A program made the position numbers and the translations under genes. Of a DNA stretch of 45,705 bases, positions 1-37,125 are shown one piece after another (positions within the stretch are counted from its first letter, which is position 1; every line of letters begins with the position of its first letter). Where the stretch lies: the IMG/VR virus record IMGVR_UViG_3300010938_000065, positions 1 through 45,705 of that record. The stretch is one strand, 5' to 3'. The notes beneath the pieces were generated by a model that saw only the letters and a program-made list of their open reading frames with translations, searched no databases and was not told the origin of the DNA. This DNA comes from a virus.

Positions 1-976
1 CAGAGAGTAAAACCTGTATAGGTATTTGATAAGGATTGGAATATGAAGAAAAAGGTCCACTCAAAATACGTGCTGTTGTTGAGTTATGGGGTACACAAAA
101 TACTCTACCGTCAGGTAGTAAAACTCCGCCAATGAAAGCATTGAGCCCAGGATAAGTACTTGAAGGTGTAGTTAAGGTATCTGTTACTGGGTTATAGATA
201 CGCGCTGTTGTTGAATTATGGGGTACACAAAATACCCTACCATCGGGCAGTAAAACACCGCCATTAAAAGCAGCGCCTCCAGGATACGTACCTGAAGGTG
301 TAGTTAAAGTATCTGTTACTGGGTTATAGATACGTGCGTCTGTTGAATTAAAGGGTACACAAAATACTCTGCCGTCGGGCAGTAAAACGCCGCCATCAAA
401 AGCCGAGCTTCCAGGATAAGTACCTGAAGGTGTAGTTACAGTATCTGTTACTGGGTTATAGATACGCGCGTCTGTTGAATTAAAGGGTACACAAAATACC
501 CTGCCATCAGGTAATAAAACGCCGCCAGAAAAAGCACCGGTTCCAGGAAAGCCTGAACGTATAGTTAAAGTGTCTGTTACGGGGTTATAGATACGTGCGT
601 CTGTTGAATTAAAGGGTACACAAAATACCCTACCATCGGGCAATAAAACACCACCAGCAAAAGCACCGCCTCCAGGATAAGTGCCTGAAGGTGTAGTTAC
701 AGTATCTGTTGCTGGGTTATAGATACGTGCTGTTGTGTTGTTATGGGGCACACAAAATACCCTACCATCGGGTAATAAAACGCCGCCAATGAAAGCACTG
801 ACTCCAGGATAAGATCCGGAAGGAGTTTCTGTTACGCCGCTTTGCGTATTAAAATATTGCCCCGTATTATTCCTATTCCTTTGGGTAATAGTTTGCAGTA
901 TATTTAATACGTCTGTCTTTAACGTATTCGTATTACTGCTTAAATTTTCAAATAAATTGCCTTTTAATTTAATCAT
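1..976 (-). CDS. Kelch-like repeat tail-fibre/receptor-binding protein, partial (C-terminal end beyond window)
   Basis: Open reading frame starting at ATG 976-974 and still open at base 1. The first 50 residues are unique. From residue 51 there are six repeats of 43-44 residues, each with the core GGVLLPDGRVFCVP followed by NSTxARIYNPxTDT. The tail after the last repeat (ARILSGPF..NPYQ..) matches the C-terminus of the neighbouring paralogue at 1224-2207, so only a few residues should be missing beyond the edge. Six short beta-rich units suggest a Kelch/beta-propeller-like fold. Position at the distal end of a tail-fibre block suggests a receptor-binding tip. The fold and role are inferred; the repeats are directly visible. 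Confidence 0.8.
   Translation of the reverse strand, partial: MIKLKGNLFENLSSNTNTLKTDVLNILQTITQRNRNNTGQYFNTQSGVTETPSGSYPGVSAFIGGVLLPDGRVFCVPHNNTTARIYNPATDTVTTPSGTYPGGGAFAGGVLLPDGRVFCVPFNSTDARIYNPVTDTLTIRSGFPGTGAFSGGVLLPDGRVFCVPFNSTDARIYNPVTDTVTTPSGTYPGSSAFDGGVLLPDGRVFCVPFNSTDARIYNPVTDTLTTPSGTYPGGAAFNGGVLLPDGRVFCVPHNSTTARIYNPVTDTLTTPSSTYPGLNAFIGGVLLPDGRVFCVPHNSTTARILSGPFSSYSNPYQIPIQVLLS
62..826 (-). repeat. Tandem repeat array 1 (six units of 129-132 bp, coding)
   Basis: Six in-frame units inside the left-edge gene. The marker string gtacacaaaata recurs every 129-132 bp. Units are nearly identical at DNA level. They differ mainly at fixed codons: the residue after FCVP, T or D in NSTxAR, the pair before AF, and the residue after AF. 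Some units use IRSGFPG in place of TPSGSYPG, which makes them one codon shorter. Near-identity should allow recombination within this gene and with array 2. Confidence 0.9.
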
Positions 977-32134: not shown

Positions 32135-32620
32135 GTGTTTAAAAAAATTATTTTAATAGGATCGCTATTTTCGAATATAGTCTTTGCCAACGAAATTATT
32201 GTAGATATCGGGCTGGGAGCCTTTAACACAAAAAGCGATAATATTTCACAAGTAAAAATAGCAAAAATTGGCATACAAAAAGATATATGGAATAATTTAA
32301 GGCAAAGATTCAACGTTGGCGGTTGGATAGATTCTAGAAGTCGCGATTTTAATAATAGTGTCTTAGTAGGATATCAATTAGGATTTGTGGTAAAAAATGA
32401 TATTTTCGAAGCAAACGTATTTAGTGGCCCTACAATTATCAGTAATACCGATGCTTTATTGGGCGGACATTTTCAATTTAATGAAACTGTTTTTTTTGGA
32501 ATAGTGGATAAAAACGGTAATGCTATTGGATCAGCTTGGAATCATTTTTCTAGCGCCGGCCTAGAAATGCCAAACCATGGTAGAGATTTTATGGGATTGG
32601 AAATCAAATTTACATTTTAA
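32135..32620 (+). CDS. PagL-like outer-membrane lipid A deacylase (161 aa)
   Basis: Starts at GTG, since AGGAG lies 5 nt upstream and the nearby ATG at 32131 is closed after two codons. A signal peptide ends at FA before NEI. The rest is a short beta-barrel pattern ending in Phe (EIKFTF), a barrel signature. Near the C-terminus AWNHFSSAGLEMPNHGRDF matches the PagL active-site block: H137 and S139 give H-x-S, then AGL..PN.G. The family's third catalytic Glu is an Asp (D151) at that spacing. It would remove the 3-O acyl chain of lipid A in the outer membrane. Family by motif; activity inferred. Confidence 0.7.
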   Translation: MFKKIILIGSLFSNIVFANEIIVDIGLGAFNTKSDNISQVKIAKIGIQKDIWNNLRQRFNVGGWIDSRSRDFNNSVLVGYQLGFVVKNDIFEANVFSGPTIISNTDALLGGHFQFNETVFFGIVDKNGNAIGSAWNHFSSAGLEMPNHGRDFMGLEIKFTF

Positions 32621-32943: not shown

Positions 32944-33198
32944 TTGTTATTTTTTATTATTTTATTCTTATTTTTTCCAATATTCTTTGTAATATTAATA
33001 AGTTATGAAGATGGTGTACAATTTAATCTATTGAAAAAACTATTATGTAAATTTGGATTACATAAACTTAAAGTTAAATTTGGTAAACTTAAGATAAACA
33101 AATATTATTGTCAATATTGCAAAAAACCAAGAAAGCGTCCTAAATTAACTATGATTGATGGCAGTAATAAATGGTATAAAAATAACTATAAATTCTAG
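32944..33198 (+). CDS. Single-pass membrane protein with CxxC motif (84 aa)
   Basis: Starts at TTG 32944 with GAGGA 4-5 nt upstream; no in-frame ATG exists early. A strongly hydrophobic N-terminal helix (FFIILFLFFPIFFVILIS) is followed by a basic region with CKFGLHKLK and YYCQYCKKPRK, a split Cys/His cluster that could bind zinc. It is the last gene before the TnpB element, which lies 13 bp past its stop. I infer an inner-membrane protein; role unknown. Confidence 0.65.
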   Translation: MLFFIILFLFFPIFFVILISYEDGVQFNLLKKLLCKFGLHKLKVKFGKLKINKYYCQYCKKPRKRPKLTMIDGSNKWYKNNYKF

Positions 33199-33202
33199 CA
33201 AT

Positions 33203-33211
33203 AAATTTTAA
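33203..33211. repeat. 9-bp direct repeat (AAATTTTAA), left flank of mobile element
   Basis: The identical 9 bp lie immediately outside both ends of the element (33203-33211 and 34331-34339) in the same orientation, as a target-site duplication would. AT-rich sequence makes chance agreement possible but unlikely at full length directly on both edges. Confidence 0.6.
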
Positions 33212-33380
33212 CAACCTGCCCCACTAGGCTGCGCCTAGCAGGACTCCTTTCAGGGGATTGATCGCCTTCTTACGAAGGCTCTCCTGTCCCTTTCGAGCTA
33301 TGTTGACCGCAGCATTGAAGTCAGCGTGCAACTCACTGTTACATGACGTGCAACGAAACGTTGCACGGTTCACTCGACTC
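33212..33380 (-). ncRNA. Candidate omega (re)RNA scaffold at the 3' end of tnpB
   Basis: TnpB elements encode a guide RNA scaffold overlapping the 3' end of tnpB and the element end. Only 12 bp separate the tnpB stop from the edge, so the scaffold must lie inside the coding sequence. Strong hairpins are there: GCCTTC-TTAC-GAAGGC (33264-33279) and CTAGGC-TGC-GCCTAG (33224-33238), the latter enclosed by CCTGC/GCAGG (33215-33219, 33238-33242). The guide would be the minus-strand sequence outward from 33211. The 5' limit is a guess. Confidence 0.35.
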
Positions 33381-34288
33381 TGCTTGTCTATAACGCCACA
33401 GACGGAGCATGTTTGAGAAGTATATGCCGGGTTAACCCAAGCGACATATACTCCTTCCTCCTGCGCGCGTTCCGTGGCTCGACGTGCAAAGTAGCTCCTA
33501 GCCCAACGGTCGATCCGAAGATTGCTAAGAACTTTGGGATGCTCAACAACTAGATTCCGTGAATCTTGCTGACAACGTATCAACGCACGATTCACTTCAA
33601 CATCAAGCTGCTGTTTAAGTAAAGTTTTGAATGGCTTCTTTGGATGCTTCTGTATTTGGCGTTCCCGTTGAGCATCACGTTCCTGACACATGATTGATTT
33701 TAGATTTCTGCCGAGATATCCGTCTGATCTGGCTACGCCGTGGGCGATACCAACATCAACACCCATAGATTTTGGTTTCGGTGTGGCGGCTTCTATTTCT
33801 TTCGATACAAATACACGAGCGTACCATTTGCCATTCCTGATTTGGACTACCTCACTGTGATCTGAAAGTGTCCAACCATTCCTGAGTTTATCATTCAACT
33901 TTCTATGGGAGCGTGCTGGAATCCGCACCTTGTTTCCCCACTGACTCGTGATTGTAAGCCAATAATCGAACGTGCTGTCCTTTGATGGAGAAATGGTTGC
34001 AGGGCATGACTCGAAATTGACTTGGGGACAATTAGATTTATCGCCGTTAGCCTTTGTAGCAGCACGATGTGCCGCAATAACTCCCATAGCTTGCTTCTGC
34101 GCTTGGTTAGCTAACTTACCCATCCCTTTCGTTGAAAAGAACCTGACATGGGGTTTGAAGTAGAGTTGGGTGACAAAATATTGAAGATAGAGCCTGTAAC
34201 GGGATGCTGAATACCGCACATCTTCCAATTTTTGAAAGTTCGGAAGGATTTGGAGTTGGTAGGCTCTGGTAATTGTTTTAGTTCTCAT
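33224..34288 (-). CDS. tnpB: TnpB (IS200/IS605-family OrfB) RNA-guided nuclease (354 aa)
   Basis: RuvC-like catalytic residues in order: Asp178 in MGVDVGIAHG, Glu249 in VVEHPKV, and Asp323 in HADFNAAVNIA. A zinc ribbon lies before the last (Cys294, Cys297, Cys313, Cys316; CSVCG ... CTSC). The N-terminus RAYQLQILPNFQKLEDVRYS is the usual TnpB opening. Length is slightly short of the 370-400 typical. All catalytic residues are intact, so it may be active as an omegaRNA-guided DNA nuclease that retains the element. AAGGG lies upstream of ATG. Codon usage is GC-richer than phage genes. Confidence 0.93.
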   Translation of the reverse strand: MRTKTITRAYQLQILPNFQKLEDVRYSASRYRLYLQYFVTQLYFKPHVRFFSTKGMGKLANQAQKQAMGVIAAHRAATKANGDKSNCPQVNFESCPATISPSKDSTFDYWLTITSQWGNKVRIPARSHRKLNDKLRNGWTLSDHSEVVQIRNGKWYARVFVSKEIEAATPKPKSMGVDVGIAHGVARSDGYLGRNLKSIMCQERDAQRERQIQKHPKKPFKTLLKQQLDVEVNRALIRCQQDSRNLVVEHPKVLSNLRIDRWARSYFARRATERAQEEGVYVAWVNPAYTSQTCSVCGVIDKQSRVNRATFRCTSCNSELHADFNAAVNIARKGQESLRKKAINPLKGVLLGAA

Positions 34289-34330
34289 AATCCCTTACTT
34301 ATTATAGGTACAGCCTAGTGGGGCAGGTTG

Positions 34331-34339
34331 AAATTTTAA
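34331..34339. repeat. 9-bp direct repeat (AAATTTTAA), right flank of mobile element
   Basis: Partner of the repeat at 33203-33211, directly abutting the right end of the element and 6 bp short of the lipoprotein stop. A target-site duplication is not expected for IS200/IS605 transposition, so the pair is unusual. Confidence 0.6.
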
Positions 34340-34345
34340 ATACAA

Positions 34346-34495
34346 TTATCTACGTGATTCAATATCTTTTTGAGGAATTTCTTCACATATATAAAGATTG
34401 GAGCCAAGTAACCGACAATTCTTAACCACGATATTTACTGGACTATTAGCACAGGCCGATAGCATAATTAGGCAAAAAATAAACAAATATTTCAT
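34346..34495 (-). CDS. Small lipoprotein (49 aa)
   Basis: Begins MKYLFIFCLIMLSACANSP, a clear signal peptide with lipobox LSAC, so it should be processed and lipidated. The mature part is about 35 residues (VKNCRLLGSNLYICEEIPQK) with two more cysteines. ATG (34495-34493) overlaps the stop of the upstream gene as ATGA, supporting its reality. It is not proline-rich like known outer-membrane spanins. The mobile element is inserted 15 bp beyond its stop. A periplasmic or outer-membrane role is likely; exact function unknown. Confidence 0.7.
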   Translation of the reverse strand: MKYLFIFCLIMLSACANSPVNIVVKNCRLLGSNLYICEEIPQKDIESRR

Positions 34496-34846: not shown

Positions 34847-35182
34847 TTAAATGGTCGTATTTATAAAAGCATCGACGATGGCCTTATTAAGCCTACTTGT
34901 AGGTGCTTGATCAAAACTTACAGTGCCAAAATCACGTCCTACAGCTTTTGCAACGTGCCAAGCAGTTATAGGCCCATTTTCGCGATTCAAGACATAACCG
35001 CCACCAGGACCGCGACGAACAGTGACAAGGCCGGCCTGCCTTAGATTACGCATAACCTGTTCAAGAAAATTTATCGTAGTATCAATCGTATTCGCAAGAT
35101 CAGAGGTACGAGTAGGTCCTTCACGATTTTTGAGCATATTTACTGCATTAATACCGACTTCTAGCTTTTTATTTAATTTCAT
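34847..35182 (-). CDS. Rrf2-family transcription regulator without Fe-S cysteines (111 aa)
   Basis: Winged helix-turn-helix of the Rrf2/IscR type: NKKLEVGINAVNMLKN, then IDTTINFLEQVMRNLRQAGL as the recognition region, then the family marker VTVRRGPGGGYVLNRENG for the wing. IscR binds a [2Fe-2S] cluster through three cysteines; this protein has none. It is shorter than IscR (about 160 aa) and lacks the Fe-S and effector tail. GAGGAG lies close upstream of ATG. It likely acts as a constitutive DNA-binding repressor or a phage switch; its target is unknown. Confidence 0.82.
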   Translation of the reverse strand: MKLNKKLEVGINAVNMLKNREGPTRTSDLANTIDTTINFLEQVMRNLRQAGLVTVRRGPGGGYVLNRENGPITAWHVAKAVGRDFGTVSFDQAPTSRLNKAIVDAFINTTI

Positions 35183-36042: not shown

Positions 36043-37125
36043 TTATTCTCTACCATGAGCGCCATTCTCACGCCTTGTCGCGTTACTAATTTTTACAAAT
36101 TCTACATTATCATGAAATTCATTAATATTGCTAGCCCCGACATATGTCATGGCAGAACGTAAGCCGCCTTCTATATCTTGTAAAATATTCTTAACAGGAC
36201 CTTTATAATTTACATAAAAAGCTTCGCCTTCATCAGTGCGCCACGCAGCATTTTTTCTTTGAATTTCATAAGACTCTTTTGAGGCCGATCCACGATATTT
36301 CTTTCTCAATAATTGAGTTTTAGATAACTCAGAAGCTTCCTCAATACTAACTATATTTCCCGTAGCATCTAAAATATCACCAGGAGTTTCATCTGTACCA
36401 GATAGCATACCGCCAAGCATAACTAGATGCGCTCCTGCTCCAATTGCCTTAGCAATATCGCCAGGGGTTTTCATGCCACCGTCTGCGATTATAATGACTT
36501 CGGTATTTTTTAATAAATTAGCAATTTCAATTACGGCAGAAAGCTGCGGATATCCTACGCCAGTCTTAAGCCTAGTAGTGCAAGCACTTCCTGGGCCAAT
36601 ACCTATTTTTATACCATCAACAGCAGTGCCTGTATATTCTAAAAATGTTTTTACACTATCTGAGCTAGCAAAATTACCCACAAAAATAGAGCCATTATCT
36701 CCAATAATTTCCTTAAGTCTTTTTACCTGTTCTACTACGCTTATTTGAGCACCATGGGCTACATCAATAACAAAATGAGAAGCCCCAGAATCTAGTAATG
36801 CTTTTGCTCTTTCTAATTCCATATTTCCAATACCGATAGAAACCCAAGGAGATAGATGGTGACCGAGAAAATATTCAATAGATTCTTTGAACATAGCTAC
36901 ATTATCCTGTATGGAGCAAAATCTATGCATACATCCACGAGCACCGACTTTTGCTAGTGCTTTACACATTTTAGGACCAGTCACAGTGTCCATATTTGAC
37001 GATATTACAGGAAGAAATAGATTATCTCCGCGTACATTAACAGATAAGTTCACGTCCTGTCTACTAAAAATATTTGAAAATCTTGGAATGATAAGCACAT
37101 CATCAAATGTAAACGTTTCCTTCAT
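36043..37125 (-). CDS. guaC: GMP reductase-like enzyme, IMPDH/GMPR family (360 aa)
   Basis: A TIM-barrel enzyme that acts on purine nucleotides. GIGPGSACTTRLKTGVGYPQ contains the catalytic Cys182 loop. ADGGMKTPGDIAKAIGAGA and LVMLGGMLSGTDETPG are phosphate-binding segments. DIEGGLRSAMTYVGA near the C-terminus is the family ending. No CBS domains are present, and GVGYPQ plus the EGEA..VNYKGPV stretch is closer to GMP reductase (GMP to IMP) than IMP dehydrogenase. That split is a judgement by eye. It overlaps the deaminase stop (ATGA), so it belongs to the nucleotide operon. Confidence 0.85.
   Translation of the reverse strand: MKETFTFDDVLIIPRFSNIFSRQDVNLSVNVRGDNLFLPVISSNMDTVTGPKMCKALAKVGARGCMHRFCSIQDNVAMFKESIEYFLGHHLSPWVSIGIGNMELERAKALLDSGASHFVIDVAHGAQISVVEQVKRLKEIIGDNGSIFVGNFASSDSVKTFLEYTGTAVDGIKIGIGPGSACTTRLKTGVGYPQLSAVIEIANLLKNTEVIIIADGGMKTPGDIAKAIGAGAHLVMLGGMLSGTDETPGDILDATGNIVSIEEASELSKTQLLRKKYRGSASKESYEIQRKNAAWRTDEGEAFYVNYKGPVKNILQDIEGGLRSAMTYVGASNINEFHDNVEFVKISNATRRENGAHGRE

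What the first reader, a model, noticed from the sequence alone, without database searches (positions are those of the whole stretch)
33203..34339. TnpB-only element with perfect inverted ends and a 9-bp target duplication
Known IS200/IS605 elements have subterminal hairpins, no long inverted repeats, and insert without target duplication. Here the 20-bp ends are exact inverted copies and AAATTTTAA flanks both sides. This suggests that a transposase other than TnpA moved it, with TnpB as the sole cargo and its RuvC residues intact.
Basis: partly seen in the sequence, partly recalled or inferred. Interest (0 to 1): 0.65.

Follow-up and report, generated by a model that had tools for sequence, protein, structure and literature searches.

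The report
Phage TnpB inside an inverted-repeat transposon
A bacterial-virus genome carries a gene for a TnpB nuclease, a relative of the ancestors of CRISPR Cas12, packaged between perfect inverted repeats and a 9-base target duplication, so it was probably moved by an ordinary cut-and-paste transposase supplied by another element and not by TnpB's usual partner, an arrangement known in eukaryotes and their viruses but for which I found no bacterial or phage precedent.

Summary
A 1,119-bp insert (33212-34330) in a Caudoviricetes contig holds one intact gene, tnpB. Its ends are 20-bp exact inverted repeats (24 of 26 bp), and AAATTTTAA is repeated directly on both sides. Shuffles never reproduced this. 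Among 94 TnpB loci surveyed, this was the only one with such ends plus a duplication. The insert is 47% G+C, against 36% for the rest of the window, and sits between two convergent genes without breaking either.

The interpretation needs one change. This TnpB groups with serine-TnpA (IS607-type) TnpBs, not with tyrosine-TnpA (IS200/IS605) ones. Neither family makes terminal inverted repeats or target duplications. The best reading is a non-autonomous cut-and-paste element that captured an IS607-type tnpB and was mobilised in trans. The only published parallels I found are eukaryotic and eukaryotic-virus Fanzor elements. The right repeat contains the tnpB stop codon and folds into a 12-bp hairpin where the guide-RNA scaffold is expected.

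Not shown: a second copy, an empty site or a partner transposase. The 20-bp end was absent from every collection scanned, and the nearest TnpB (71%, another phage) lacks the repeats. Verdict: real; new variant of a known kind; mechanism inferred.

The parts
33203..33211 (.). left target-site duplication AAATTTTAA
   Evidence: direct reading
33212..33237 (+). terminal inverted repeat at the 3' side of tnpB (20 bp exact 33212-33231, 24/26 overall); contains the tnpB stop codon
33218..33244 (-). 12-bp hairpin GUCCUGCUAGGC-GCA-GCCUAGUGGGGC, candidate last stem of the guide-RNA scaffold; overlaps the inverted repeat
   Evidence: fold, z -2.5 to -3.25
33212..33300 (-). inferred omega/re-RNA scaffold region (end of tnpB plus terminal repeat), with perfect hairpin GCCTTC-GTAA-GAAGGC at 33264-33279
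   Evidence: folding and raised codon identity with L004 over the last codons (15/19 vs 97/220, post hoc p=0.004; scan test not significant); inferred
33192..33211 (-). predicted guide 5'-TTAAAATTTATTGCTAGAAT (starts with the target duplication)
   Evidence: inference by analogy with known TnpBs; not tested
33224..34288 (-). tnpB, 354 aa, IS607-type clade, RuvC D178/E249/D323 present
   Evidence: AlphaFold2 mean pLDDT 86 with Foldseek hits to Cas12f/TnpB
34301..34306 (-). TATAAT, possible -10 box just inside the 5'-side repeat; no -35 recognised
   Evidence: reading; not called by the scan; weak
34305..34330 (-). terminal inverted repeat at the 5' side of tnpB (exact part 34311-34330)
34331..34339 (.). 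right target-site duplication AAATTTTAA
   Evidence: direct reading
32944..33198 (+). left neighbour ORF (84 aa), ends 4 bp before the duplication, intact
34346..34495 (-). right neighbour: 49-aa lipoprotein-like ORF, stop codon 6 bp outside the duplication, intact

Best explanation
The insert is a small non-autonomous cut-and-paste (DDE-type) transposon whose only gene is an IS607-type tnpB. Shown: a unit of foreign composition with exact terminal inverted repeats, flanked by a 9-bp direct repeat, between two intact convergent genes, holding one intact TnpB with all RuvC residues. Inferred: (1) a DDE transposase encoded elsewhere (host chromosome or another element) bound the 20-26-bp ends, cut the element out, and joined it to a 9-bp staggered cut in the AT-rich gap between two phage genes; gap repair gave AAATTTTAA on both sides. 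(2) TnpB replaced or lost its serine TnpA partner and now rides in this element. (3) TnpB makes its guide RNA from the 3' end of its own gene; the scaffold ends in the hairpin inside the right repeat, and the guide is read from the duplication and the flanking phage sequence. (4) TnpB with that guide cuts phage genomes that lack the insert, so that repair from an insert-bearing genome copies the element in, as a homing or anti-loss device. The same 20 bp would then serve as transposase site, stop codon and RNA scaffold.
For: Exact 20-bp inverted ends plus an exact 9-bp direct repeat, far beyond chance. The left end copies the reverse complement of the 3' arm and tail of the right-end hairpin (12/12), not of its 5' arm (9/12), so these are true inverted repeats and not two similar subterminal palindromes. 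G+C 0.47 against 0.36 for the rest of the window; no other window of that size is as high. TnpB intact and correctly folded in silico. TnpB in an 18-member clade (support 100/93) holding all six serine-TnpA-linked TnpBs in the tree and none of the tyrosine-TnpA-linked ones. No TnpA of either type found by similarity in the window. Unique in a survey of 94 TnpB loci. Precedent: eukaryotic Fanzor2s of IS607 origin, and Fanzor1s, in TIR/TSD transposons (PMC10711439; PMC3627910).
Against: No second copy of the ends, no partner transposase and no empty site were found. The closest TnpB (L004, 71%) lacks terminal inverted repeats, so the repeats are not an old shared feature of this TnpB lineage. 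The transposase family is not identifiable from a 9-bp duplication and these ends. The guide-RNA role of the right end rests on folding and a modest post hoc conservation signal. Cellular genomes could be scanned only with an exact 20-mer (none found) and with two N-terminal peptide patterns (no relative), so absence there is weak evidence.
Confidence: 0.72

Rival explanations
1. An IS607- or IS200/IS605-type solo-TnpB element moved by a TnpA in trans; the inverted ends and the direct repeat are incidental (end hairpins that happen to match, AT-rich flanks).
For: The TnpB is IS607-type; most phage TnpB loci surveyed have no TnpA detected nearby. Another solo element (L069/L071, two copies at different sites) shows a 17-bp AT-rich inverted repeat near its ends without a duplication, so inverted matches can occur in solo-TnpB elements.
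Against: A 20-bp exact GC-rich inverted repeat at the very boundary plus an exact 9-bp direct repeat is not matched in shuffles or in 93 other loci. The repeat includes bases outside the hairpin palindrome. Serine and HUH TnpA reactions do not make a 9-bp duplication (PMC6188088; family knowledge).
Confidence: 0.13
2. The tnpB was inserted into, or captured by, an older inverted-repeat element or gene context, and the present unit is a fossil or domesticated gene that no longer moves, as L004 may be.
For: Single copy; no partner found; in L004 the tnpB has the base composition of its surroundings and no inverted ends.
Against: Ends and duplication in the window are still exact, which suggests a recent insertion; base composition is unlike the phage.
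Confidence: 0.1
3. TnpB itself made the staggered break and the 9-bp repeat by fill-in, without a DDE transposase.
For: IS607 TnpB cuts leave 5' overhangs (about 16 nt on one strand and 22 nt on the other, PMC11061315).
Against: The reported stagger is about 6, not 9; no known TnpB joins DNA ends; it does not explain the inverted repeats.
Confidence: 0.03
4. Assembly artefact: a chimeric join created the inverted ends.
For: The window is a metagenome-derived virus record and reads are not available here.
Against: Both junctions show an exact 9-bp repeat and both neighbouring genes are intact, which a chimera would not produce.
Confidence: 0.02

Closest known systems
Fanzor2* elements: IS607-derived Fanzor2 in TIR/TSD cut-and-paste transposons of an alga and molluscs (PMC10711439)
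   Same: TnpB-type nuclease of IS607 ancestry inside a unit with terminal inverted repeats and target duplication
   Different: those are eukaryotic; this one is in a bacterial virus, encodes TnpB and no transposase, and has a 9-bp duplication
Fanzor1-only TIR elements, e.g. SPu-1 (33-bp TIR, TA duplication) and the IS4-type elements of Ectocarpus and its virus (18-bp TIR, 8-bp duplication) (PMC3627910)
   Same: the nuclease is the main or sole cargo of an inverted-repeat transposon, including in viruses
   Different: Fanzor1, eukaryotic hosts, often many copies or a linked transposase
IS607 family
   Same: TnpB clade
   Different: no serine TnpA; has inverted ends and a 9-bp duplication
IS200/IS605 family, solo-TnpB members
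   Same: TnpB-only, hairpin at the right end
   Different: TnpB clade, true inverted repeats, target duplication
MITE-like or passenger-carrying non-autonomous derivatives of DDE insertion sequences
   Same: inverted ends plus duplication, no transposase
   Different: cargo is an RNA-guided nuclease; parent insertion sequence unknown

Membership tests
IS200/IS605 | HUH (Y1) TnpA, in cis or in trans | tested here: not met
   no Y1 TnpA match in the 45.7-kb window; in trans not testable
IS200/IS605 | no terminal inverted repeat and no target duplication | tested here: not met
IS200/IS605 | TnpB groups with Y1-linked TnpBs | tested here: not met
IS607 | TnpB of the serine-TnpA-linked clade | tested here: met
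   18-row clade, support 100/93, all serine-linked rows in the tree and no Y1-linked row
IS607 | serine TnpA in the element | tested here: not met
IS607 | no inverted ends and no duplication | tested here: not met
DDE cut-and-paste element (non-autonomous) | terminal inverted repeats | tested here: met
DDE cut-and-paste element (non-autonomous) | fixed-length target duplication | tested here: inconclusive
   9-bp duplication at one site; only one insertion known
DDE cut-and-paste element (non-autonomous) | transposase that shares the ends | tested here: inconclusive
   none found with the 20-mer or the ends; cellular genomes only poorly searchable
DDE cut-and-paste element (non-autonomous) | empty target site with one copy of the duplication | not testable with these tools
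   no related phage with these neighbours found; nearest named phage shares only a 35% baseplate protein
RNA-guided TnpB nuclease | RuvC D/E/D and zinc ribbon intact | tested here: met
RNA-guided TnpB nuclease | guide RNA from the right end | tested here: inconclusive
   hairpins and codon conservation only; no Rfam match, and none in IS607-type controls either
Fanzor2* | IS607-derived nuclease inside a TIR/TSD transposon | tested here: inconclusive
   anatomy met; eukaryotic origin not met (phage contig)

The most novel reading that the evidence does not exclude
A prokaryotic counterpart of Fanzor capture: an IS607-type TnpB has been taken over by a DDE cut-and-paste element in phages, and its guide-RNA scaffold has been rebuilt on the terminal inverted repeat, so that one 20-bp sequence is transposase site, stop codon and RNA hairpin. 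The left repeat may also pair with the right one in read-through transcripts (computed duplex -50 kcal/mol against -20 for the hairpin) and silence guide formation unless transcription starts inside the element.
Probability: 0.3. Interest if true: 0.75.

Novelty: new variant of a known kind. Interest (0 to 1): 0.56.

Why it matters
TnpB nucleases are thought to persist by returning their own transposon to sites from which it was lost, and their coupling to particular TnpA enzymes is taken as defining. Captures by unrelated cut-and-paste transposons are documented for the eukaryotic descendants (Fanzors). A clear case in a bacterial virus would show that such partner switching is not confined to eukaryotes. 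It would also let one test how TnpB copes with a transposase that does not choose the motif TnpB needs, in a 1.1-kb element in laboratory bacteria.

Tried and rejected
Exact 20-mer in genome and viral collections: none. 17-mer: one chance hit inside a tail-gene ORF. Ends against plasmids and phages at permissive E: only chance hits, e.g. Bacillus pumilus 84% over 32 nt at E=5. Whole element against phages and plasmids: nothing beyond one chance 31-nt match. TnpB relatives: one 71% homologue (L004) and one truncated 55% homologue (L066); neither has these ends. A weak resemblance of L004's downstream DNA to the right end (13/20, p=0.02 uncorrected) was not relied on. Related phages by tape-measure or GuaB protein: no syntenic relative. 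Rfam: no known RNA family. Two similar subterminal palindromes as the source of the inverted repeat was rejected because the left end matches only one arm plus the unpaired tail.

Full report
OBSERVATION. The sequence is as described: AAATTTTAA (33203-33211), CAACCTGCCCCACTAGGCTG (33212-33231), its exact reverse complement (34311-34330), AAATTTTAA (34331-34339). The inverted repeat runs to 26 nt with 24 matches. The 20-mer occurs nowhere else in the window at 3 mismatches. The window is a 45,705-bp virus record with baseplate J, LysM-type baseplate, ribonucleotide reductase, ThyX and GuaB-like genes; the nearest named phage is Myxococcus phage Mx1 at 35% for one baseplate protein.

THE INSERT. 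It is 1,119 bp and 47% G+C; the rest of the window is 36%, and no other window of that size is as high. It lies between an 84-aa ORF on the plus strand (stop at 33198) and a 49-aa lipoprotein-like ORF on the minus strand (stop at 34346-34348). Leaving out the insert and one duplication, 19 bp separate the two convergent stop codons, so no ORF was broken.

THE GENE. The only gene is tnpB (354 aa). Pfam finds the TNB domain, PHROGs call it transposase, and the closest solved structures by sequence are Cas12f/TnpB. D178, E249 and D323 and the zinc-ribbon cysteines are invariant or nearly so in relatives. AlphaFold2 gives mean pLDDT 86, with Foldseek matches to Cas12f, ISFba1 TnpB, ISDra2 TnpB and mimivirus Fanzor2. 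In a tree of 86 TnpBs the window protein, L004 and L066 form a clade inside an 18-member group (100/93) that holds all six serine-TnpA-linked TnpBs and none of the Y1-TnpA-linked ones. The exact branch inside the group is not firm (94/55).

THE ENDS. IS607 elements have neither terminal inverted repeats nor target duplications (PMC6188088 abstract; PMC3627910); nor do IS200/IS605 elements (family knowledge). I asked whether two similar subterminal hairpins could mimic an inverted repeat. The right end does fold into a 12-bp hairpin, GUCCUGCUAGGC-GCA-GCCUAGUGGGGC. But the left end matches the reverse complement of the 3' arm at 12/12, against 9/12 for the 5' arm, and also copies the unpaired tail AGGTTG, so it is a true inverted repeat. 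In 94 TnpB loci (85 with enough flank) the window is the only one with an inverted repeat of 12 or more at the boundary plus a direct repeat of 6 or more. A contrasting case is L069/L071: two copies of one solo-TnpB element at different sites share a 17-bp AT-rich inverted repeat and a conserved left flank TTAACGT, with no duplication, as expected for insertion at a fixed motif.

GUIDE RNA. The tnpB stop codon is inside the right repeat, so no separate 3' region exists. The last part of the gene contains a perfect GCCTTC-GTAA-GAAGGC hairpin, and with the terminal hairpin it folds better than shuffles (z -2.5 to -3.25). Against L004, codons for identical residues are identical in 15 of 19 cases at the end and in 97 of 220 elsewhere (p=0.004, post hoc). 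A window-scan test was not significant (544/5000). No Rfam family matches, nor did any in the IS607-type controls. The scaffold role is therefore likely by analogy, not shown. If the guide starts at the end of the repeat it would read TTAAAATTTATTGCTAGAAT and, in the empty site, be preceded by TTGTAT. Where an IS607 guide starts can shift relative to the transposon end (PMC10711439).

RELATIVES AND COPIES. The exact end is in no genome or viral contig scanned. A 17-mer gave one chance hit. BLAST of the ends gave only chance hits. The element has no meaningful DNA match in phages or plasmids. L004 (71%, a 223-kb phage) has a tnpB of local base composition without such ends, and L066 (55%) has none downstream. 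No related phage supplied an empty site. Cellular genomes were searched only by the exact 20-mer and by two N-terminal peptide patterns, so a parent insertion sequence may well exist there.

MECHANISM AND NOVELTY. [quoted passage not shown] The transposition step is inferred from anatomy; the nuclease and guide steps are inferred from family. In the open literature searched, TIR/TSD capture of this nuclease type is described for Fanzor1 and Fanzor2 of eukaryotes and their viruses (PMC3627910, PMC10711439); six searches gave no prokaryotic case. The library lacks most subscription papers, so an existing description cannot be excluded. I rate it a new variant of a known kind.

Noticed in passing
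L069 1721-3198 and L071 1787-3264: The same solo-TnpB element (94% identical) at two different sites in two viral contigs; 17-bp inverted repeat CATATAAAAATATATAA near the ends, conserved left flank TTAACGT, no target duplication.
   Followed up: partly
window 32135-32620: PagL-like lipid A 3-O-deacylase ORF (Pfam PF09411, 7.5e-7) in a phage, near the insert; possible surface-modification gene.
   Followed up: no
window 34847-35182: Rrf2-type transcription regulator (PF02082, 3.4e-19) encoded by the phage.
   Followed up: no
window 2-976 and 1224-2207: Two adjacent proteins built of near-identical GGVLLPDGRVFCVP...ARIYNPVTDT repeats, probably kelch/propeller-like tail proteins; Myxococcus phage Mx1 also has a kelch-repeat gene beside baseplate J.
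   Followed up: no
window 34346-34495: 49-aa lipoprotein-like ORF (MKYLFIFCLIMLSACANS...) ending just right of the insert and overlapping the end of the next ORF; perhaps a spanin-type lysis protein.
   Followed up: no
window 36043-37125: IMP dehydrogenase/GMP reductase-like gene beside ThyX, deaminase, peptide deformylase, RNR and MazG genes: a large nucleotide-metabolism block.
   Followed up: partly
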